Shown: in pieces, positions 20,054 through 56,195 of the stretch
How positions within the stretch are numbered: the first letter of the stretch is position 1
How the letters are laid out: every line of letters begins with the position of its first letter
Assembly: GCF_017315735.1 (NCBI RefSeq)
Contig: NZ_JAFLRK010000002.1
Coordinates: 1-64,000 of the forward strand
Source: Paracoccus shandongensis
GTDB taxonomy: Bacteria > Pseudomonadota > Alphaproteobacteria > Rhodobacterales > Rhodobacteraceae
Reading direction: 5' to 3'
DNA: 64,000 nucleotides
Made by a program: the position numbers and the translations under genes
Notes under the pieces: model-generated
Told to the model about the DNA's origin: nothing
Database searches by the model: none
The model's input: only the letters and a program-made list of their open reading frames with translations

Positions 20054-21742
20054 TTAGTAGAGGAAATAGCGTTGTGCCATGGGAAGTTCCCTTGCAGGCT
20101 CGCAGGTTAACAATTGTCCATCGGCGCGGACCTCGTAGGTTTCAGGGTCCACCGCGATGGCGGGCATGGCGGCGTTCAGGACCATGTCGGCCTTGCCGAT
20201 GGACCGGGTGTTCCCGACGGCGATCAGGGTCTTGTCGAGGCCGTCCGCCGCGCCCGCGTCCAGCCCCGCCTTGCTGACGAACAGCGCCGATGCCCGGCCC
20301 GTATGCCCCCACATCGGGCGGCTGAAGATCGGCTGCACGGGGATGGATCCGTTGGGATCGCCCATCTGCGCCACGCTGATCTGGCCGCCGACCAGCACCA
20401 TTTCCGGCTTGACGCCGAAGAAGGCGGGGGACCACAGCACCAGGTCGGCGCGCTTGCCGGGGGTGACGCTGCCGATATGGGCCGACACGCCATGCGCGAT
20501 GGCCGGGTTGATCGTGTATTTGGCGATGTAGCGCCGGGCGCGCAGGTTGTCGTTCTGGCCCTGCTCCTCGGGCAGGCGGCCGCGCTGGCGGCGCATCTTG
20601 TCGGCGGTCTGCCAGGTGCGGATGATCACCTCTCCGATCCGGCCCATGGCCTGGCTGTCCGAGGAAATGACGCTGAACGCGCCCAGGTCGTGCAGGATGT
20701 CCTCGGCGGCGATGGTTTCGCGTCGGATGCGGGATTCGGCGAAGGCCACGTCCTCGGGCACCCGGCGGTCGAGGTGATGGCAGACCATCAGCATGTCGAG
20801 ATGCTCCTCGACCGTGTTGGCCGTATAGGGCCGCGTCGGGTTGGTGGACGAGGGCAGGACATTGCCCATCCCCACCATGCGGATGATGTCGGGGGCGTGC
20901 CCGCCGCCCGCGCCCTCGGTGTGATAGGCATGGATGGTGCGGCCCGCGATGGCGGCCATGGTATCCTCGACAAAGCCCGATTCGTTCAGCGTGTCGGTGT
21001 GGATCATCACCTGCACGTCCATCCTGTCCGCCACGGTCAGGCAGGTGTCAATGGCGGCGGGGGTGGTGCCCCAGTCCTCGTGCAGCTTCAGCGCGCAGGC
21101 GCCCGCGCGGATCTGTTCCTCCAGCGGTTCGGGGCGCGAGGCATTGCCCTTGCCCGCGATGCCGATGTTCACCGGCAGGTCGGCGCAGGCTTCCAGCATC
21201 CGGGCGATGTGCCAGGGGCCGGGGGTGCAGGTGGTGGCAAGCGTCCCGTGCGCGGGCCCGGTGCCGCCGCCCAGCAGGGTGGTGACGCCCGAATGCAGCG
21301 CATGGTCCACCTGCTGCGGGCAGATATAGTGGATGTGGCAGTCAAAGCCGCCGGGCGTCAGGATGCGCCCCTCGCCCGCGATGATTTCCGTGCCGGGACC
21401 GATGACCAGCGTGACGCCCGGCTGCGTGTCGGGGTTGCCCGCCTTGCCGATGCCCGCGATGCGCCCGTCCCGCAGGCCCACATCGGCCTTGGTGATGCCT
21501 TGGTGATCAAAGATCACGACGCCGGTGATGACCGTGTCCATGGCGCCGCCTTCGCGCGTCACCTGGGACTGGCCCATGCCGTCGCGCACGACCTTGCCGC
21601 CGCCGAACTTCACCTCCTCGCCGGGGATGGTCAGGTCGCGCTCGACCTCGATCAGCAGGTCGGTATCGGCCAGGCGGATGCGGTCGCCGGTGGTGGGGCC
21701 GTAGAGGGCCGCGTAATCGGCGCGGGAAAGATTTAGTCCCAT
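20054..21742 (-). CDS. ureC: Urease alpha subunit UreC
   Basis: UreC is the catalytic subunit that hydrolyses urea to ammonia and carbamate. The 562-residue protein shows every nickel-centre residue: H136 and H138 (CHIH), carbamylated K219 ([11 protein letters not shown]), H248, H274 and D362 ([10 protein letters not shown]), plus catalytic H322 (CHHL) on the flap. The ATG at 21742 has AAGG about six bases upstream; a GTG two codons earlier (21748) is too close to that site. A 235-base AT-rich insert separates it from ureB, which is unusual because the two are normally almost contiguous. Confidence 0.98.
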
Positions 21743-21748
21743 GATCAC

Positions 21749-21977
21749 CTTATCGTGAGGGTTTCACACCTAAGCTTTTGAAATGAAGCTAAGAGAAGCG
21801 GACGTCGTGCGAACAAACAGGTGACGGTCAGCAACATATGGTTCTATTGGGAAGGTTGCCGAAATCGCTCTGAATTAGGTGACTAATGTCAAATGTAGAA
21901 TTCGCTCTCACGGTTGTCTCAATTGCCCTAAGTGCTGTTATGGCAATTGGTAAGTTCCGTGGTTGGTTCTGACCCAT
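21749..21977. other. AT-rich insert between ureB and ureC
   Basis: About 230 bases whose base composition differs sharply from the flanking urease genes (by eye well below half G+C, with GAATTC, TTTTGAAATGAAG and ATTGCC stretches). It encodes no urease function. On the + strand, opposite to the operon, three tiny frames are chained: 21783-21824, 21821-21886 (GTGA overlap) and 21886-21972 (TAATG overlap). It may be a remnant of transferred DNA. No terminal repeats or target duplication could be made out. Confidence 0.6.
21886..21972 (+). CDS. Possible 28-residue membrane peptide
   Basis: ATG at 21886 follows AGGTG at a workable distance. The 28 residues begin MSNVEFALTVVSIALSAV, form one hydrophobic helix, and end in a basic/aromatic tail (KFRGWF). 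It could be a small membrane peptide, or the start of a broken membrane protein. The surrounding AT-rich sequence argues for foreign origin. Nothing identifies a function, and chance occurrence is possible. Confidence 0.25.
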   Translation: MSNVEFALTVVSIALSAVMAIGKFRGWF

Positions 21978-22295
21978 TTACAGCGCCCCCATCACGGCTT
22001 TCCGAAACCCCTGCACCACGCGGTCGCCCGCGAAGGGGATCAGGCGGACCTCGCGGGACTGGCCGGGTTCAAAGCGGACGGCGGTGCCGGCGGGGATCGA
22101 CAGGCGCATCCCGCGCGCGGCGGTGCGGTCGAAGTCCAGCGCCGGGTTGGTCTCGGCGAAGTGGTAATGGCTGCCGACCTGGATCGGGCGGTCGCCGGTG
22201 TTGGCGACCATGAGGGTAACCGGATCGCGGCCCTGGTTCAGGGTGATCTCGCCGGGGGCGGGCAGGATTTCGCCTGGAATGATCTGGCGGATCAT
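21978..22295 (-). CDS. ureB: Urease beta subunit UreB
   Basis: UreB is the structural beta subunit of the (alpha-beta-gamma)3 urease. It is 105 residues: [20 protein letters not shown] at the N-terminus, [20 protein letters not shown] at about 34-53, and [16 protein letters not shown] at about 64-79, all conserved in the family. Its ATG (22295) directly abuts the stop of the UreJ gene (22296). The AT-rich insert begins directly beyond its stop codon, so the reading frame is intact. Confidence 0.96.
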
Positions 22296-29164: not shown

Positions 29165-31096
29165 ATGGCCAGCGAAGAAGCCGCAACCAGCCCCTCTGCG
29201 GCGGATCATGCGCGTGAACCCCATGTCCCGTCGAAGCTGACGCCCGCCCTTGTGCTGGCCTGCCTGGGCGTCGTCTATGGCGATATCGGCACCTCGCCGC
29301 TTTACGCGCTGCGCGAATCGCTTGTCCACGCGCATGAGGAAGGCCTGCCCGAAACCTCGGTCATCGGCATCGTGTCGCTGCTGTTCTGGACGGTGGTGCT
29401 GATCGTGACAGTGAAATACGTCATCCTGATCCTGCGCGCCGACAACAACGGCGAAGGCGGCACCCTGTCGCTGGTCGCCAAGGCGCAGGGCGCGCTGAAG
29501 GTCGGCCCCGAGGCCCGGCGCCGGCGGCTGCTGTTGTTGCTGGGGATCGTGGGCGTGTCGCTGTTCTTCGGCGACAGCATGATCACGCCCGCGATCTCGG
29601 TCCTGTCGGCGGTCGAGGGGCTGACCCTGGTCCAGCCCGCCTTCCAGCCCTGGGTGGTGCCGGTCACGGTGGTGATCGTGGTCGCCCTGTTCTGGGTCCA
29701 GAGCGGCGGCACCGCCCGGATCGCCCGGCTGTTCGGGCCGGTCATGCTGGTGTGGTTTTCCACCATGGCGGTCCTGGGGCTGACCCATATCGCCGACGAC
29801 GCGCGCATCCTTCATGCGCTGAACCCGCTGCGCGCGGCGGGTTTCCTGACCCGTTACGGCATGGCCGCGCTGCCGGTGCTGGGATCGGTCTTCCTGGCCG
29901 TCACCGGGGCCGAGGCGCTTTATGCCGACATGGGCCATTTCGGCCGCAGCGCCATCCGCACCGCCTGGAGCGCGCTGGTCTTTCCCGCCTTGGCGCTGTC
30001 CTATCTGGGCCAGGGCGCCATGGTGCTGGCCCATCCCGAAACCCTGTCGAACCCCTTCTTCCTGATGGCGCCCGAATGGTTCCTGGTGCCCCTGGTGATC
30101 CTGGCGACGGCGGCCACGGTGATCGCCTCGCAGGCGGTGATCTCGGGCGCGTTCTCGGTCGCGGCGCAGGCGGTGCAGATGGGCCTTCTGCCGCGCCTGC
30201 ACATCAAGTACACCTCGGACACGCAGGCGGGCCAGATCTACCTGCCCAAGGTCAACGCGGTCCTGCTGGTGGGCGTTGTGGCGCTGGTGCTGGCCTTCGG
30301 GTCGTCCGCGCGGCTGGCCAGCGCCTATGGCATCGCGGTGACGGGCGACATGGTCATCACCTCGGTCTTGGCGGTGATCGTGTTCCGCTGGTCGTGGAAC
30401 TGGTCCTGGCCGCTGGTCGCCCTGGTGATGGTGCCGGTCCTGGGGATCGAGCTGATCTTCTTTTCGGCCAACCTGATGAAGCTTCTGGACGGCGGCTATA
30501 TCCCGCTGATCTTCGCCGCCTGGGCCATCGCCATGATGGTGATCTGGGTCGAGGGGATGCGCCGCCTGCAGGACAAGCTGGCCACCGAAAGCATCGCCAT
30601 GGACCTGCTGGCGGGCAAGCTGTCGAAATCGCCCCCGGTGATCGTGCCGGGCACGGCGGTCTTCCTGACGGCCGATCCCATGGTCGCCCCGCCCGCGCTG
30701 CTGCACAACCTGAAACACAACCGCGTCCTGCACGAGCGCAACTTCATCGTGAAGGTCGAAAGCGCCACCACCCCCCGTGTCCCTGACGACGCCCGCCTGC
30801 GCCTTGAGGCCATCGCCCCCGGTTTCTGGCGGGCCTGGCTGTCCTTTGGCTACATGGAGCAGCCCAACGTCCCCCGCGCCCTGGCCGAGGCCAAGCGCGA
30901 GGGCCTGAAGTTCGACATCATGTCCACCTCGTTCTTCCTGAACCGCCGCACGCTGCGGGGGGGCAAGGGCACGCTGATGCCCCACTGGATGAGCCGGATT
31001 TTTGTCAGGCTGTATCGGTCGGCGGCCGAGCCGACGAACTACTATCGGTTGCCGTCGAACCGGGTGGTGGAGCTGGGGCAGCAGAAGAATATTTGA
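29165..31096 (+). CDS. kup: Low-affinity potassium transporter Kup
   Basis: Kup is a KUP/HAK/KT family K+ (H+ symport) carrier of the inner membrane. The 643-residue protein has family segments GVVYGDIGTSPLYALRES (about 37-54), NNGEGGTLSL near 96-105, twelve predicted membrane helices in the first two thirds, and a cytoplasmic C-terminal domain ending NYYRLPSNRVVELGQQKNI. The C-terminus is intact up to its stop codon, and the AT-rich island begins immediately after it. Confidence 0.96.
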   Translation: MASEEAATSPSAADHAREPHVPSKLTPALVLACLGVVYGDIGTSPLYALRESLVHAHEEGLPETSVIGIVSLLFWTVVLIVTVKYVILILRADNNGEGGTLSLVAKAQGALKVGPEARRRRLLLLLGIVGVSLFFGDSMITPAISVLSAVEGLTLVQPAFQPWVVPVTVVIVVALFWVQSGGTARIARLFGPVMLVWFSTMAVLGLTHIADDARILHALNPLRAAGFLTRYGMAALPVLGSVFLAVTGAEALYADMGHFGRSAIRTAWSALVFPALALSYLGQGAMVLAHPETLSNPFFLMAPEWFLVPLVILATAATVIASQAVISGAFSVAAQAVQMGLLPRLHIKYTSDTQAGQIYLPKVNAVLLVGVVALVLAFGSSARLASAYGIAVTGDMVITSVLAVIVFRWSWNWSWPLVALVMVPVLGIELIFFSANLMKLLDGGYIPLIFAAWAIAMMVIWVEGMRRLQDKLATESIAMDLLAGKLSKSPPVIVPGTAVFLTADPMVAPPALLHNLKHNRVLHERNFIVKVESATTPRVPDDARLRLEAIAPGFWRAWLSFGYMEQPNVPRALAEAKREGLKFDIMSTSFFLNRRTLRGGKGTLMPHWMSRIFVRLYRSAAEPTNYYRLPSNRVVELGQQKNI

Positions 31097-31323
31097 GGGG
31101 TGGAGCGAACCTAGATAGCACCATCGGTGAGGAATTACCCGCTGTCTGCACTGAGAGCTTGATCCACGGGCCCGAGCGTATCCTAGATAGCAAAGAGGAT
31201 AATGCAATCTCCTTCTCGAGACTTGAATCTGACCAGATGATTGTCCAGAGGGAAGGAGCCGGAGAGGCTCTTTTTTGTTTGATAGAACTGGCGAACAGGA
31301 ATGCTAATGTGTTAGCAAAGTAA
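31093..31323 (+). CDS. Small frame at the left end of the AT-rich island
   Basis: A 76-codon frame that could start at TTG 31093, overlapping the kup stop codon. The predicted product is hydrophilic, with an acidic middle and an end reading LIELANRNANVLAK. An 11-base direct repeat, CCTAGATAGCA at 31110-31120 and 31182-31192, lies in it 72 bases apart and in the same frame. No recognisable domain or convincing ribosome-binding site is visible. It may be a gene remnant or non-coding. Confidence 0.2.
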   Translation: MRGGANLDSTIGEELPAVCTESLIHGPERILDSKEDNAISFSRLESDQMIVQREGAGEALFCLIELANRNANVLAK

Positions 31324-31359
31324 GCAACCGTCGTGCCGCCAAGTAAATGAGAGTTTTTC

Positions 31360-31506
31360 ATGCCTGATGAACTTACTACAGAAATTCTAATGAAGTGTCT
31401 TATTGGACTTAAGGGGCGAGCTGAACGGCTAGAGGCTGATCAGGTGGTCGAGTCTTTTTCTACTGTTGGTCCTTTGCTTGATCTAATATCTACGGAAGAT
31501 CATTAA
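31360..31506 (+). CDS. Short frame directly preceding, and in frame with, the P-loop ATPase
   Basis: ATG 31360 opens a 48-codon frame (MPDELTTEIL at the start, LLDLISTEDH at the end) that stops at TAA 31504-31506. The next codon, GTG 31507, is the first of the ATPase frame, in the same register. ATPases of this kind normally have a helical lead-in before the Walker A strand, which is what this segment looks like. So it is either the N-terminus of the ATPase cut off by a nonsense mutation, or a separate small protein with stop-start coupling. Confidence 0.5.
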   Translation: MPDELTTEILMKCLIGLKGRAERLEADQVVESFSTVGPLLDLISTEDH

Positions 31507-32967
31507 GTGATATTTGGAAGAAGGGGAACTGGAAAGACGCACGCCTTGAGGTATCTTTACGCAACTCGTGGAGATGTGGGCGACTGCTCAATATTTATTG
31601 ACATGAGGAACATAGGCTCTGATGGTTCTATATACAATGACCAGAATTTGCCAGTTACGGAACGCGCAACTCGCCTGCTGATAGATACATTAGCATTCAT
31701 ACAGGATGGACTGTTAGATTTCATCATAAATGGCGGAGTCAGTGACATCAACAGTCTTTCGGGCCCCATTGACAGATTGGGAAATGCTATATCTAATGTA
31801 AGGGTTACGGGAAACGTTTCAGTAAAAGAAATAGTAACAGAGACTGATAAAAAATCAAAAGGGCTTGGCATCCAATTGTTGTTTGGGGGAAGGCCGAAAG
31901 TTGATGCTCATGCAAAACAGGAAGGTTCTAAAACTCTAGAATCTGCTTTATCGAGAGAGTCTACTGGTGCTGAGACGGTGGCCATCCGTTTCCCTCAACT
32001 TAGTTCTTCGCTAAGAGACATAGTGAATGCACTTGCAGTAAGACGTGTTTGGATAATTATGGATGAGTGGAGTGCAATTCCTGTTGAATTGCAGCCTTTC
32101 CTTGCGGATATGTTAAAGAGAGCATTCTTTAACATACCTCAGATCACTGTAAAAATTGGAGCAATTGAGCATCGAACGAAGTTCTTGCTTGATTCGGGGC
32201 CTGATAATGCCATTGGTCTAGAGCTTACTTCTGATATTAGGAGTAATGTTCGTCTTGATGATTATTTGATTTTTGAAAATAATGACGATGCTAGCATAAG
32301 ATTTTTCAAAGAGTTTTTGTTTCGCCATGTAAAGAGTTATTGCCGTGAAAAGGGTCTGCCTGAACCGGATAGCTCTGACGAAGTCTACCGAAAATCTTTT
32401 AACCAGAAAAACTCTTTTGAGGAATTTGTCAAGGCGGCAGAGGGTGTTCCGCGGGATGCCCTCCATATAGCATCTATTTGTGCGCAAAAATCGCTTGCTG
32501 GCACAATAGATATTCCGAAGGTTAGAGCTTCAGGACATAGATACTACCAAGAGGACAAGAGTTCTCAGGTGGAAGAGAATCCTGTGCTTCGTGATCTTCT
32601 TCAGTTTGTCGTTGATAATTCAATTAGAAGCAAGAAAACGAATGCATTCTTGCTTGAAGTGGGAAAGCGGGACCGGAATGTCGATCTGCTATTTGATCGC
32701 CGGCTCGTTCATATTCGCCAGCGAAATGTTTCTTCCAGAGATAATCCGGGAGCGCGTTATCTGCATTACAAAATTGATTACGGATGCTACGTTGATCTCA
32801 TAGCAACAAAGCAGATGCCGTTAGAGCAGGACTTTTCGAAGGCGATTACTCTCGAGGATATTGCTGAGAATGTTGAGGTTCCAATGGAAAATGATGCGAG
32901 GTCTTACAGGCGGTCAATCCTTGACTTATCGCAGTTCTATTCTGCTCATCCTGAATACGCTGCATAA
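31507..32967 (+). CDS. AAA-like P-loop ATPase (possibly ORC-CDC6 type) on an AT-rich island
   Basis: The product is 486 residues from GTG 31507. Walker A is GRRGTGKT at 4-11, almost at the first residue, and Walker B is VWIIMDEWS near 180-188, followed by a region like a sensor strand (VKIGAIEHRTKF). The C-terminal part (about 370-445) looks like a winged helix, with RLVHIRQRNVSSRDNPGARY and KIDYGCYVDL. The layout recalls the bacterial ORC-CDC6-like AAA ATPases, some of which are found in defence or mobile loci; this is from memory of the family and not verified. GGAAG lies 8 bases before the GTG. Codon use is AT-rich and unlike its neighbours, which indicates transfer. If the TAA at 31504 is a mutation, the protein is truncated by 49 codons. 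Confidence 0.6.
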   Translation: MIFGRRGTGKTHALRYLYATRGDVGDCSIFIDMRNIGSDGSIYNDQNLPVTERATRLLIDTLAFIQDGLLDFIINGGVSDINSLSGPIDRLGNAISNVRVTGNVSVKEIVTETDKKSKGLGIQLLFGGRPKVDAHAKQEGSKTLESALSRESTGAETVAIRFPQLSSSLRDIVNALAVRRVWIIMDEWSAIPVELQPFLADMLKRAFFNIPQITVKIGAIEHRTKFLLDSGPDNAIGLELTSDIRSNVRLDDYLIFENNDDASIRFFKEFLFRHVKSYCREKGLPEPDSSDEVYRKSFNQKNSFEEFVKAAEGVPRDALHIASICAQKSLAGTIDIPKVRASGHRYYQEDKSSQVEENPVLRDLLQFVVDNSIRSKKTNAFLLEVGKRDRNVDLLFDRRLVHIRQRNVSSRDNPGARYLHYKIDYGCYVDLIATKQMPLEQDFSKAITLEDIAENVEVPMENDARSYRRSILDLSQFYSAHPEYAA

Positions 32968-33047
32968 TGCCCCCGTAAACCCCCTTCCCCTCCCACCCCC
33001 ATCCGCGCTATCCCCTCCCGAACCCACACCATCCGAGGAGGCTCCCC

Positions 33048-33974
33048 ATGCGCGCGTTCGTCTTTCCAGGCCAGGGGGCGCAGACCGTCGGCATGGGGCG
33101 CGAGATGGCCGAGGTCTACCCAGTTGCGCGCGAGGTGTTCGAGCGGGTGGACGAGGCGCTTGGGGAAAAGCTCTCGGACCTGGTCTGGAACGGGGATATC
33201 GAGACGCTGACGCTGACGCAGAACGCGCAGCCGGCGTTGATGGCGGCCTCGATGGCGGCGTTCCGGGCGCTGGAAGCGGAAGGCATCACTATCCGGGACG
33301 CGAATTTCGTGGCGGGGCATTCGCTGGGGGAATACTCGGCCCTGTGCGCGGCGGGGGCGCTGACGCTGGAGGATACGGCGCGGCTGCTGCGGCTGCGCGG
33401 GCAGGCCATGCAGGAGGCTGTGCCGGTGGGCCAGGGCGCGATGGCCGCGATCCTGGGGCTGGATTTCGCGACCGTGGACCGGATCGCGCGCGAGACGGCG
33501 GGCGAGGAGGTCGTGCAGGCCGCCAATGACAACGATCCGGGGCAGGTGGTGATCTCGGGGCACAAGGGCGCGGTGGAACGGGCGGCCGCGGCGATGAAGG
33601 AAGCCGGGGCCAAGCGGGCGCTGATGCTGCCGGTCTCGGCCCCGTTCCATTCGGTGCTGATGCAGCCTGCGGCGGCGGTGATGGCCGAGGCGCTGGCGGG
33701 GGTGGACATCCAGCCCCCCGCCGTCCCGCTGATCGCCAATGTCCGGGCCGAGGCGGTGACGGAACCCGGCGCGATCCGGCGGCTGCTGGTGGAACAGGTG
33801 ACGGGCACCGTGCGCTGGCGCGAATCCATCGCCAACCTGGCGGGGGCGGGCGTGACCGAGTTCTGGGAAATCGGCGCGGGCAAGGCGCTGTCGGGGATGA
33901 TCAAGCGCATCGCCAAGGACGCGGTGGTCCGCAATGTCGGCGCCCCTGCGGATATCGCGGCGCTGAAGGGCTGA
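33048..33974 (+). CDS. fabD: Malonyl CoA-acyl carrier protein transacylase FabD
   Basis: FabD moves malonyl groups from CoA to ACP to supply fatty-acid elongation. The 308-residue protein has FPGQGAQ (6-12), nucleophile GHSLGEY with S92, and catalytic H201 in SAPFHSV. The ATG at 33048 is preceded by GAGGAGG. It is the first gene of fabD-fabG-acpP, a conserved fatty-acid cluster; fabF is not present in the window. Confidence 0.97.
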   Translation: MRAFVFPGQGAQTVGMGREMAEVYPVAREVFERVDEALGEKLSDLVWNGDIETLTLTQNAQPALMAASMAAFRALEAEGITIRDANFVAGHSLGEYSALCAAGALTLEDTARLLRLRGQAMQEAVPVGQGAMAAILGLDFATVDRIARETAGEEVVQAANDNDPGQVVISGHKGAVERAAAAMKEAGAKRALMLPVSAPFHSVLMQPAAAVMAEALAGVDIQPPAVPLIANVRAEAVTEPGAIRRLLVEQVTGTVRWRESIANLAGAGVTEFWEIGAGKALSGMIKRIAKDAVVRNVGAPADIAALKG

Positions 33975-53241: not shown

Positions 53242-53609
53242 ACCGGCCGGTTCACATCATCCTCGGCATCCTCGGGCGAGATGCCGAGGGCGTCCAGCCC
53301 CGCCTCCAGCAGGTCGGCCAGGCGCGGCTCTCCCATCAGGTAGTCCTCGGTGGGTGTGGTGCGTTCGACCCGCGCGGTCTCGATGGCCTCGTCCAGTTCC
53401 TCGGGCTCGAAGCTTTCGCGCCCGATCCACATGACGGCGACCAGCGACGCCTGCTCGTCCTCGTTCAGGTTGGCGATGAAGTCGCGCAACTCGCTGCGCA
53501 CGCCATGCTGAGGCCTGCCGCCCGAATGCGCCCAGGGGTTGACGCCGCTGTCGTATTCGCGCGCGCGGATGATGATATGGGCGATCTTCGCGGGACTGAT
53601 CTGCAGCAT
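53238..53609 (-). CDS. DUF3775 protein
   Basis: The 123-residue acidic protein has MLQISPAKIAHIIIRAREYD at the start, a GGRPQHG segment, IANLNEDEQASLVAVMWIGR near 45-64 and a C-terminal helical region ending in an Asp/Glu-rich tail. This matches DUF3775, common in Rhodobacteraceae and without a known function. It is convergent with the sugar dehydrogenase and shares the CTAG stop. Confidence 0.85.
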   Translation of the reverse strand: MLQISPAKIAHIIIRAREYDSGVNPWAHSGGRPQHGVRSELRDFIANLNEDEQASLVAVMWIGRESFEPEELDEAIETARVERTTPTEDYLMGEPRLADLLEAGLDALGISPEDAEDDVNRPV

Positions 53610-53722
53610 GGCACGGCTCCTTCATTGGGCCGACTGTCGCGCCGTTGCGGGCGGTGGTCAATCGGGTCGCGCTTGGGTTTGCGCATTCAGATCTACAGTG
53701 ATTTGGCGCACGCTTTCGGCGA

Positions 53723-54391
53723 TCATGAAGATCCCCGCCCCACACAGGTAAAACAGGATGGAAAGGAATACGGTAGTCCTGCAACGCTCAGGCCTGTCAC
53801 CCGGTACAAGCGGCGGGCCGTATAATAAGCAAGATCGATTGCGATGGCGACCAGAAGGCATATGACCAGTCCTTCGGTGATCGTCAGCAAACTCAGCAAC
53901 CGCTGCGCGCCGGGTTCGGCCTTCCACGCTGCCAAGTCGATTGCCTTCAGTTCCTTCAGCCTGACCCTGGTCTGAACCAGTATAGCAAAAATCGAAGAAA
54001 AGACTCCAAGTGCCGTTAATCGGCGTATCCAGTTGCCGAAGAAATCTCCATCAAACCGTGGAGCATAGGCCCGGGGTGATCCTTCTGGTGGCCGGATCCA
54101 TTTCCGCCAGCGCCGCCGCAGGGGCTGCAACCGTCGCATCGTATCGGCGCGTCGAGGCGCAGGCTTAAAACGAAGGCGCCACGCGTTGTCATGCCAAAAT
54201 GGCGGAGCTGCCTGAAGATAGTTCGCGTTTTCCATTTGGCAGCGCAGGTCGAACCATGCTTCATCATCATAGGCGTCGGCATTTCCTCGTTGCACGGCGT
54301 CGTATCGCTTAGCTTGATCCCTTGCTGGCTTTAGTTCAAGCGAAGCAGGTACGCGTATGAGAACCTGTTGTTGTGCAGCTTTGTCCTGCAT
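53723..54391 (-). CDS. Unknown membrane protein, probably frameshifted near its 3' end
   Basis: The 222-residue frame has no recognised family. It has a soluble Arg-rich part (1-120) with aromatic motifs, then hydrophobic stretches at about 126-141 (TALGVFSSIFAILVQT) and 166-191 (LLSLLTITEGLVICLLVAIA). After about residue 203 the sequence becomes Cys-rich and ends SCFTCVGRGSS. In a neighbouring frame the same DNA reads FLSILFYLCGAGIFMIAESV and continues to a stop at 53658, a plausible third membrane helix. A single-base indel near 53785-53800 would join the two. Lower GC than neighbours suggests an accessory gene. ATG 54391 has AAGG upstream, 10 bases after mutL. Confidence 0.5.
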   Translation of the reverse strand: MQDKAAQQQVLIRVPASLELKPARDQAKRYDAVQRGNADAYDDEAWFDLRCQMENANYLQAAPPFWHDNAWRLRFKPAPRRADTMRRLQPLRRRWRKWIRPPEGSPRAYAPRFDGDFFGNWIRRLTALGVFSSIFAILVQTRVRLKELKAIDLAAWKAEPGAQRLLSLLTITEGLVICLLVAIAIDLAYYTARRLYRVTGLSVAGLPYSFPSCFTCVGRGSS

Positions 54392-54401
54392 GCGGTCATC
54401 C

Positions 54402-56195
54402 TTATCGCCCGAACAGCCGCTCGATATCGGCCAGCCGCAGCTTGACCCAGGTGGGGCGGCCGTGGTTGCACTGGCCGGACTTGGGCGTGCGCTCCATGTC
54501 GCGCAAGAGGGCGTTCATTTCCTCGGCCGTCATGCGGCGGCCGGACCGGACGGATCCGTGGCAGGCCATGGACGACAGGACCGCATCCAGCCGCCCGCGC
54601 AGACGGTCGGACGCGCCTTGGTCCGCCAGGTCGTCCAGGATGTCGCGGATCAGGGCGGACAGGTCCAGCTTCGCCAGCATGGCCGGGGTTTCGCGCACGG
54701 CAATCGCCCCGCCGCCGAAAGGTTCGATCACCAAGCCCAGGTCGGCCAGGTCCTCCGCGACGGCCAGGATGCGGGCGGCGTCGGCATCAGACAGGTCCAG
54801 GATCTCGGGGATCAGCAGGGCCTGGCGGGCGATGCCGGTGGCCGCCGCCTGGGCCTTCAGCCGTTCATAGACCAGCCGTTCATGGGCGGCGTGCGCATCG
54901 ACGATCACCAGCCCGTCGTCGGTCTGGGCGATGATGTAGTTTTCATGGATCTGCGCCCGGGCCGCGCCCAAGGGGGCCTCCGCCGGGACCGCCACCGGAT
55001 CCTCGGCCCGGGCCGAGGGCGCCTCGGCAAAGCCCATGGCGGGCGCTTGCAGATCCAGGCTCGCGCGGATCGCCGTTGCGGATGGCCGGTAATCCATCTG
55101 GTATGCCCGCGCCGCCGGTTCGGTGCGGAACGCGGCCAGCGTCGCGTCCCCAACGGTCGTTGACGCGCGATGCCCTGCCCCCGCCAGCCCGTGCCGCAGG
55201 GCGCTGACCAGCAGACCGCGCGCGCCCTGGGGATCGCGGAAGCGGACCTCGGCCTTGGCGGGGTGGACGTTCACATCCACAAGCTGCGGGTCGCAGGCCA
55301 GATACAGCACCGCCGCCGGATGCCGGCCTTGGGCCAGCACGTCCATGTAGCCCGCCCGCAGCGCCCCGGTCAGCAGCTTGTCCCGCACGGCTCTGCCGTT
55401 CACATAGAGATGCTGCGCCACCGCCGCGCCGCGCGAATAGGTCGGCAGCGCGGCAAAGCCCGACAGCCGCAGCCCGTCGCGTTCGGCATCCATGGGGATC
55501 GCGTTGTCGATGAAATCGCGCCCCATGACGCGGGACAGGCGGATTTGCAGGGCGTCGAACAATTCGCCCTGCTCGGCGTCGGCGCGGAAGATCTCCTTGC
55601 CGTCGGCACTCAGGGTAAAGCCCACGAAGGGCTCGGCCATGGCCAGGCGGCGGACGCATTCGGCCACCGCCATCGTCTCGGCCCGGTCGCCGCGCAGGAA
55701 TTTCAGCCGGGCCGGGGTGGCGAAGAACAGGTCGCGCAGTTCCACTACCGTGCCCGGATTGGCCGCTGACGGGCGCACGGGCGTGACCTTGCCGCCCGCC
55801 ACCGCGATCATCGCGCCCTCGCCGCCGCGCGCCCGCGAGGTGATGGTCAGCCGCCCGACCGCGCCCAGCGACGGCAGCGCCTCGCCCCGAAAGCCGAAGG
55901 AGCGGATGGCCAGCAGGTCGGTGCCGTCGATCTTGCTGGTGGCGTGGCGCGAGAGCGCCAGCGGCAGGTCGTCGGGCATCATCCCGCAGCCGTCGTCGCA
56001 GACCCGGATCAGCCGCTTGCCGCCGTCCTCGATGGCGATGTCGATGCGCCTGGCCCCGGCGTCCAGCGCGTTTTCCACCAGTTCCTTGACGGCGGATGCC
56101 GGACGCTCCACCACCTCGCCCGCCGCGATGCGGTTGGCGGTGGCCTCGTCAAGCTGGCGGATGACGGGGCGGATATGGGGGGCGTGGGTGTTCAT
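54402..56195 (-). CDS. mutL: DNA mismatch repair protein MutL
   Basis: MutL is the matchmaker ATPase of mismatch repair. The 597-residue protein has the GHKL ATPase motifs [17 protein letters not shown] and [12 protein letters not shown] in the first 110 residues. The C-terminal region keeps an endonuclease-type motif, [12 protein letters not shown] (D-x-HA-x2-E-x4-E), with [11 protein letters not shown] and CNHGRPT, so it is likely a nicking MutL, as in bacteria without MutH. ATG 56195 is used. It precedes the membrane gene above by 10 bases. Confidence 0.96.

What the first reader, a model, noticed from the sequence alone, without database searches (positions are those of the whole stretch)
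31097..32967. AT-rich island with a lone P-loop ATPase wedged between kup and fabD
Composition drops abruptly straight after the kup stop codon and recovers straight after the ATPase stop, so about 1.9 kb looks inserted between two core genes. Its one clear gene has GRRGTGKT, IIMDEWS and a winged-helix-like end, reminiscent of ORC-CDC6-like AAA ATPases. Lone ATPases on such islands are candidates for defence, plasmid maintenance or integration functions. No integrase, nuclease or toxin gene accompanies it, so it is either a single-gene system or a leftover.
Basis: partly seen in the sequence, partly recalled or inferred. Interest (0 to 1): 0.75.

Follow-up and report, generated by a model that had tools for sequence, protein, structure and literature searches.

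The report
Stray, broken lone ATPase gene
A single foreign gene, now carrying a stop codon, sits between two ordinary bacterial genes; it belongs to a little-known family of lone ATP-driven switch proteins that turn up one gene at a time across many bacterial phyla and carry a long arm that may pierce membranes, so the family is a candidate one-gene antiviral system.

Summary
In detail: 31097-32967 is a sharp AT-rich single-gene insert between kup and fabD, present in 1 of 125 genomes of the genus; three relatives with adjacent kup and fabD have only 104-204 bp there. Its relatives (89 confirmed in species genomes; 7 in IMG/VR) form an ORC-CDC6/STAND-type ATPase family without a widely shared partner gene. 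The family itself behaves as a single-gene AT-rich island: 38 of 52 testable loci against 5 of 233 control ORFs. The nearest relative found (71% identical, intact) sits beside phage head, portal, HNH and integrase genes. Two AlphaFold models show a ~60-residue beta arm before Walker B, of low confidence, with an amphipathic tip (65 of 65 testable sequences of 73). Best reading: a lone, mobile, ATP-switched conflict (probably anti-phage) protein, here decayed; boldest reading: the arms form a membrane pore. No function was tested.

The parts
31097..32967 (.). AT-rich single-gene insert between the kup stop and the fabD upstream region; right edge coincides with the ATPase stop codon (the following AATGCCCCCGT is also seen in the empty site of G295)
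31097..31359 (.). spacer upstream of the gene, with an 11-bp direct repeat CCTAGATAGCA (31110-31120, 31182-31192); no repeat pair that brackets the whole insert like transposon ends or a target-site duplication was listed
31360..31506 (+). first 48 codons of the ATPase gene followed by in-frame TAA (31504-31506); R20 (invariant in the family), A21 and E22 (at least 90%) are still present
31507..32967 (+). rest of the ATPase gene, open 486 aa; starts with GTG directly after the TAA
31516..31539 (+). Walker A, GRRGTGKT (residues 53-60 of the read-through frame)
31798..31980 (+). predicted two-stranded beta arm between strand 2 and the Walker B strand (residues 147-207); model confidence low over most of it
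31861..31917 (+). amphipathic tip of the beta arm (residues 168-186)
32047..32073 (+). Walker B region, VWIIMDEWS (residues 230-238; D235, E236 invariant)
32440..32457 (+). EGVPRD motif (residues 361-366; G362, R365, D366 invariant); likened to the sensor-2 motif of AAA+ proteins from recall only
32581..32799 (+). C-terminal winged-helix-like part (residues 408-480) with highly conserved DYGCY

Best explanation
The insert is a horizontally acquired, probably recently inactivated copy of a lone, mobile ATPase gene. The intact family encodes a ~530-aa ORC-CDC6/STAND-type ATPase with complete Walker A and B motifs, a C-terminal winged-helix-like part and, in most members, a ~60-residue beta arm with an amphipathic tip. 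Shown here: single-gene insertion, absence from relatives, in-frame stop, fold class by prediction, lack of a widely shared partner gene, copies beside phage-like and other mobile genes, conserved arm pattern. Inferred: the protein is a self-contained NTP switch that senses an invader (DNA or protein), oligomerises on ATP binding like its ORC/STAND relatives, and acts through the arm, most likely by harming the infected cell; phages, satellites and plasmids carry it as cargo against competitors. In this genome the protein is probably not made in working form.
For: Composition and empty sites; 1 of 125 in genus; stop at codon 49 in a column where three relatives carry Gln, Gln and Arg, with the conserved N-terminus still upstream; 85 of 85 relatives with a Walker A matched by the script's pattern (4 of 89 loci not matched) have an in-frame start 45-63 residues before it (start chosen nearest 52). 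The window frame keeps 69 of 73 columns that are at least 90% conserved in the other 72 sequences, so decay has not gone far. Fold: AlphaFold2 mean pLDDT 87.4 and 85.3; best solved matches archaeal ATPase 2qen (Z 16.5, 318 residues, rmsd 4.8), then Cdc6/Orc, RdrA of RADAR, BrxC, CED-4, NLRs, Avs3. Lone gene: besides the ATPase, no protein cluster spans more than 6 of 89 loci (80 genome, 7 viral, 2 plasmid). Mobile surroundings: L135, 71% identical, beside HNH, head protease/major head, portal and integrase; L052 behind two recombinases and a phage-type primase; copies on 23 plasmid records. The 150 nearest ORFs include 6 phage integrases, transposases, DNA methylases and a DpnII-type nuclease; 155 PADLOC models are hit, against 17 for 150 distant ORFs (the 155 is inflated because a few methylases match many models, the number of proteins hit is not given, and the distant set has 17% fewer residues).
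Against: No functional test exists. None of the five family proteins scanned against PADLOC (window ORF, L135, L053, L120, L098) scores convincingly (best mad8, E 1.2e-05). Many loci lie beside ordinary housekeeping genes, not defence islands. Foldseek alone gives modest global agreement (best E 1.5e-05, TM-score 0.30), and proteins of this fold also serve replication, transposition and transcription control. In the conservation check the window frame ranks only 20th lowest of 73 (0.945), so it is not better kept than typical intact members. Two cyanobacterial members (L069, L075) lack the arm and six Bacillota/Bacteroidota members have a shorter one. No match in 50,697 phage records.
Confidence: 0.55

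Rival explanations
1. Mobile-element or plasmid maintenance protein: an ORC/Cdc6-like initiator or helicase loader whose winged helix binds DNA and whose beta arm works like the helix-2-insert hairpin of other AAA+ proteins (recalled) inside a ring around DNA.
For: Best folds include archaeal Cdc6/Orc1 and eukaryotic ORC, TnsC and MuB; conserved winged-helix-like end; copies on plasmids and beside a phage-type primase.
Against: In 34 of the 52 testable loci the ATPase is low in GC while the flanks are not, so it travels without a replicon, and no replication gene cluster recurs beside it; at the arm tip no basic residue dominates any column, unlike what a DNA-contacting hairpin would lead one to expect.
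Confidence: 0.25
2. The gene is intact: the TAA is an assembly error, or translation restarts at GTG 31507 so that an N-truncated protein works.
For: The 486-codon frame after the stop is fully open and keeps 69 of 73 conserved columns; GGAAG lies 8 bases before the GTG; a single assembly is all that is held.
Against: 85 of 85 relatives with a matched Walker A keep 45-63 residues in frame before it; the truncated protein would lose helices 7-16, 26-32 and 39-43 of the model.
Confidence: 0.2
3. The beta arm is only an oligomerisation element: arms of neighbouring subunits pack their hydrophobic faces together in solution, and the output is something else (for example recruitment of a host protein).
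For: Only about 7-8 residues per strand are amphipathic and the stalk is polar (36% charged); the window protein has no clear hydrophobic helix either (best 19-residue Kyte-Doolittle mean 1.36; above 1.6 in 13 of 73 members), so nothing else ties it to a membrane.
Against: The hydrophobic tip sits at the far end of a long stalk, which is the layout of membrane-inserting hairpins of pore-forming toxins (recalled).
Confidence: 0.3

Closest known systems
ORC-CDC6-like family, Pfam PF24389
   Same: P-loop region; three of four full-length relatives tested score above the gathering threshold (L135 42.2, L053 43.3, L098 58.2 against 27 bits)
   Different: The window ORF scores 17.5 and L120 24.9; in L135 and L053 the match covers only about 50 residues, in L098 about 330; no paper naming PF24389 was found
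P-loop ATPase, Sll1717 family (NCBIfam NF047389)
   Same: ATPase core aligned over about 200 residues (E 8.4e-09 for the read-through frame)
   Different: 29.2 to 45.4 bits against a cut-off of 75
STAND / ORC-Cdc6 ATPases of BREX (BrxC, BrxD), RADAR (RdrA) and Avs
   Same: Same fold class by structure comparison (RdrA Z 14.2, BrxC Z 13.2, Avs3 Z 12.7); PMC12839542 speaks of BREX ATPases as ORC-Cdc6 AAA+ (passages read)
   Different: Those belong to multi-gene systems or have large sensor parts (recalled for RADAR and Avs); this family stands alone at ~530 aa and carries a beta arm
KAP NTPases, e.g. Tmn (PMC11846954, passages read)
   Same: A P-loop NTPase used in phage defence that carries a membrane element; [quoted passage not shown]
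   Different: KAP proteins carry transmembrane segments; here the insert is a predicted beta hairpin, and no KAP model was hit
[quoted passage not shown]
   Same: Small loci with defence cargo between conserved genes; the L135 and L052 copies lie on phage- or satellite-like DNA
   Different: I did not check whether any gene of that paper belongs to this family; many copies here lie alone between apparently ordinary genes

Membership tests
ORC-CDC6-like (PF24389) | score above Pfam's gathering threshold of 27 bits | tested here: inconclusive
   window ORF 17.5; relatives L135, L053, L098 above, L120 24.9 below
ORC-CDC6-like (PF24389) | ORC/Cdc6-type AAA+ fold | tested here: met
   model matches 1fnn_A Z 15.1, 1w5t_A Z 14.8, 2qby_B Z 14.7; 2qby_A Z 14.9; predicted models, not solved structures
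P-loop ATPase Sll1717 (NF047389) | score above the NCBIfam cut-off of 75 bits | tested here: not met
   29.2 to 45.4 bits
MADS defence system (mad8) | strong match to the mad8 ATPase model | tested here: not met
   E 0.0012 for the window ORF, 1.2e-05 at best among five
MADS defence system (mad8) | accompanying mad genes beside it | tested here: inconclusive
   no other long ORF in the window insert and no widely shared neighbour in 89 loci; neighbours were not matched to mad genes one by one
KAP NTPase | KAP Pfam model match | tested here: not met
   not among Pfam matches at E up to 1 (window ORF) or 0.01 (four relatives)
KAP NTPase | transmembrane helices inserted in the P-loop domain | tested here: not met
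   the insert is a beta hairpin in both models
beta-barrel pore-forming protein (as a way of working) | amphipathic, alternating hairpin | tested here: met
   65 of 65 sequences with a testable tip, 8 of 73 not testable (columns chosen); unaligned shuffle test mean z 1.16 over 71, 39 above 1
beta-barrel pore-forming protein (as a way of working) | oligomeric barrel inserted in a membrane | not testable with these tools
   needs biochemistry or a multimer model
anti-phage defence system | protection against phage | not testable with these tools
   only association: neighbours and mobile carriers

The most novel reading that the evidence does not exclude
The family is a one-gene, ATP-switched membrane-pore system: on sensing infection the ORC/STAND ATPase forms a ring whose long beta arms zip into a beta-barrel that punctures the inner membrane, a beta counterpart of the plant resistosome and of KAP NTPases, spread through bacteria as single genes.
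Probability: 0.2. Interest if true: 0.85.

Novelty: new variant of a known kind. Interest (0 to 1): 0.55.

Why it matters
The window copy alone is a decayed passenger. The family it reveals has members, by record titles, in at least Pseudomonadota, Acidobacteriota, Bacteroidota, Actinomycetota, Cyanobacteriota, Bacillota, Planctomycetota and Spirochaetota (many are metagenome-assembled). Beyond Pfam's broad ORC-CDC6-like domain, the members scanned reach no threshold in NCBIfam and no convincing score in PADLOC or PHROGs. It has no widely shared partner gene and carries an arm that no ORC-type ATPase known to me has. One gene, one ATPase, one visible candidate effector: whether an AAA+/STAND protein can itself be the executioner becomes testable with a single clone.

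Tried and rejected
Rejected: ordinary housekeeping gene (1 of 125 genomes). Rejected: insertion sequence or transposon, since no bracketing inverted repeat or target-site duplication was listed and the insert holds no second long ORF (the small ORFs there were not searched). Rejected: toxin-antitoxin or multi-gene system, for the same reason and because no neighbour recurs widely (clusters of only two loci were not listed). Rejected as chance: D-xylose isomerase in the PDB sequence search (E 0.62). PHROGs gave E 0.038 or worse for the window ORF. Annotated phages: no match. The first genome-contig scan with the single sequence confirmed no relative among 16 pattern matches; the alignment scan then confirmed 89 of 123.

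Led nowhere or weak: promoter and terminator scan (6 found, 2.8 expected; 3 found, 1.7 expected). Papers: eight searches of the open-licence library listed no paper that I recognised as being on this family; most listed papers were seen as listings only. Viral structure library: best E 8.7e-04. Among listed solved chains none was examined for such an arm, and the arm was not searched alone, so nothing follows.

Dropped rows: the GC test used the 52 of 89 loci with at least 3 kb on both sides; the listing showed 33 loci preselected for low GC and is not used for the count. The alternation columns were picked after seeing the column averages, so 65 of 65 is descriptive; the unaligned shuffle test is the fairer one: tip mean z 1.16, whole arm 0.63, winged-helix strands 0.32, C-tail 0.20, two helices -0.62 and -0.60, and 32 of 71 tips do not exceed 1. 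Not testable: L069, L075 (no arm), L119-L123 and L126 (shortened). The neighbour scans used 150 of 259 near ORFs (within 500 bp, 80 loci) and 150 distant ORFs (over 6 kb, 62 loci); ORFs were called mechanically and some are spurious; the family tables show only the first 25 families.

Full report
What is there. GC is 0.66-0.67 just before the insert, 0.41-0.49 in the windows within 31001-33000, and 0.70 at 33001-33500. The one long frame in the insert, 31507-32967, is 486 aa with GRRGTGKT and WIIMDEWS. The insert ends with the ATPase stop codon: the flank that follows (AATGCCCCCGT) is also seen in the empty site of G295. No bracketing repeats were listed.

A broken copy. The same frame is open upstream to ATG 31360; 48 codons are followed by TAA 31504-31506, and the GTG of the 486-aa ORF comes next. 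Aligned to three full-length relatives the stop falls where they carry Gln, Gln and Arg, the first residue of the strand that leads into Walker A in the model (49-52). The upstream piece keeps R20, invariant in 73 sequences, and A21 and E22, at least 90%. In 85 of 85 relatives whose Walker A the script's pattern matched (4 of 89 loci were not matched: two fragments without it, one cut at the N-terminus, one with a variant motif) a start codon lies in frame 45-63 residues before it (the start nearest 52 residues was taken). The window frame keeps 69 of 73 columns that are at least 90% conserved among the other 72; by a leave-one-out count its 0.945 is the 20th lowest of 73. So decay has not gone far: the break is recent, or a sequencing error; one assembly cannot tell these apart. 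Restart at the GTG, which has GGAAG eight bases ahead, is possible but would give a protein without the first three helices of the model.

Distribution. The own genome has one copy. It is in 1 of 125 genomes of the genus and 2 of 295 sampled from the family. fabD is in 124 of 125, kup in 63 of 125. By the printed coordinates kup directly precedes fabD in 5 genomes: three have 204, 123 and 104 bp between them, the window genome has the insert, and G336, whose Kup and FabD are each 94% identical to the window's, has 1557 bp at 51% GC holding a different ATPase (AAA_16-like) on the other strand, itself split between two frames. A 70% identical relative of the larger piece, in an annotated 390-codon gene, lies on a Stutzerimonas plasmid beside conjugation genes. 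Two different lone ATPases, both broken, in five adjacent kup-fabD sites is striking but too few for a claim.

The family. A scan of the species-genome collection with a four-sequence alignment confirmed 89 relatives among 123 pattern matches (80 kept), a viral-contig scan 7 of 83, plasmids 23 records, one Acetobacter and 22 Burkholderia glumae, annotated phages none. Record titles span at least eight phyla. The nearest relative found, L135 (IMG/VR, 7.4 kb), is intact and 71% identical (the next, the fragment in L114, 61% over 281 residues) and lies beside HNH endonuclease, head protease/major head protein, portal and integrase genes. The relative in L052 lies behind a serine recombinase, a tyrosine integrase and a phage-type primase. 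Six relatives searched in their whole genomes are single copies (6 of 6). In Hymenobacter, where the gene follows a gene that looks like methylmalonyl-CoA mutase (by eye), none of 18 congeners with 1.5 kb held downstream of that gene has it there; a 19th had only 142 bp.

A lone gene. Clustering the called ORFs of 89 loci (80 genome, 7 viral, 2 plasmid) gave, besides the ATPase, no cluster in more than 6 loci, and those are common enzyme, transporter and regulator families at scattered positions. Exceptions that are local: a downstream gene, DinD/BRO-like by eye, in three Lachnospiraceae loci (+1, +1, +3), and an AMP-binding-enzyme gene at -1 in L070 and L082, which also share a resolvase. In the 52 loci with at least 3 kb on both sides the gene averages 12.5 GC points below its surroundings; 38 of 52 are at least 8 points below, and in 34 of those the flanks 300-1500 bp away are no more than 5 points below the host; among 233 other ORFs of at least 300 aa in the same loci 5 are that low. 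The 150 nearest ORFs include 6 phage integrases, transposases, two DNA methylases and a DpnII-type nuclease, next to many housekeeping genes; in 150 distant ORFs integrases are not among the families with two or more members.

Fold. AlphaFold2 on the read-through window frame with 72 relatives gives pLDDT 87.4, pTM 0.84; on the Hymenobacter member with 52 relatives 85.3, 0.82. Second-look alignment puts archaeal STAND/AAA+ ATPase 2qen first (Z 16.5 and 16.6), then Cdc6/Orc, RdrA, BrxC, CED-4, NLRs, TnsC and MuB; Foldseek itself has Cdc6/Orc1 first at E 1.5e-05 with TM-score 0.30.

The arm. Both models insert a hairpin of two 28-30-residue strands between strand 2 and the Walker B strand (147-207; 143-204). 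The stalk is polar (36% charged, 26% Ser/Thr); the tip is 39% hydrophobic and 28% Gly/Ser. Column hydropathy alternates: positions 169, 171, 173, 175, 181, 183, 185 average 1.2 to 3.1, positions 168, 170, 172, 174, 180, 182, 184, 186 average -1.2 to -1.9. With these columns, chosen after seeing the averages, the difference is positive in 65 of 65 sequences with enough residues and above 2 in 62. Since an alignment and a post hoc choice can manufacture such a pattern, each sequence was also tested unaligned against its own shuffles: mean z 1.16 for the tip (71 sequences, 39 above 1), 0.63 for the whole arm, 0.32 for the winged-helix strands, 0.20 for the C-tail, -0.62 and -0.60 for two helices. 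In the Hymenobacter model's register A167-L180, L169-F178 and V171-L176 pair on one side. Two cyanobacterial members have no arm and six others a shortened one.

How it most likely works. Shown: predicted fold, motifs, arm pattern, lone and mobile habit. Inferred: an NTP-switched oligomer, as for the ORC/STAND relatives; defence, because of carriers, patchiness, neighbours and fold kin; the arm as output, because nothing else in the protein looks like an effector. That the arm makes a membrane pore is a guess at about one in five; a packing or DNA-contacting arm is as likely. In the window genome the gene is most likely dead.

Known or new. The fold and the use of P-loop NTPases in defence are known (KAP/Tmn, PMC11846954, passages; BREX ORC-Cdc6 ATPases, PMC12839542, passages; phage and satellite hotspots, PMC9122126, passages). 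No paper on this family was recognised in the searches listed under Tried and rejected, and the members scanned reach no NCBIfam threshold and no convincing PADLOC or PHROGs score.

Noticed in passing
L044:3708-4870 (G336, kup-fabD gap): A different AT-rich single ATPase gene (AAA_16-like), opposite orientation and split between two frames, occupies the same intergenic spot in the closest relative; 118 plasmid records hold a relative of its larger piece.
   Followed up: partly
L135:1-7448: Very compact IMG/VR contig: integrase, portal, fused head protease/major head protein, HNH and the intact ATPase at the end; looks like a capsid-carrying phage satellite or a fragment of a prophage.
   Followed up: partly
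window 21501-22250 and 53501-54500: Two further dips in GC (0.57-0.59) in a ~0.70 background.
   Followed up: no
L117:4956-6561 and L127:5459-7034: Other members of the family also look disrupted: the ORF ends at 331 and 346 aa while the match runs on beyond it.
   Followed up: no
L093:9566-9871: A small low-GC (0.45) gene, helix-turn-helix by eye, overlaps the end of the ATPase gene on the other strand in Microvirga; possible regulator in this one locus.
   Followed up: no
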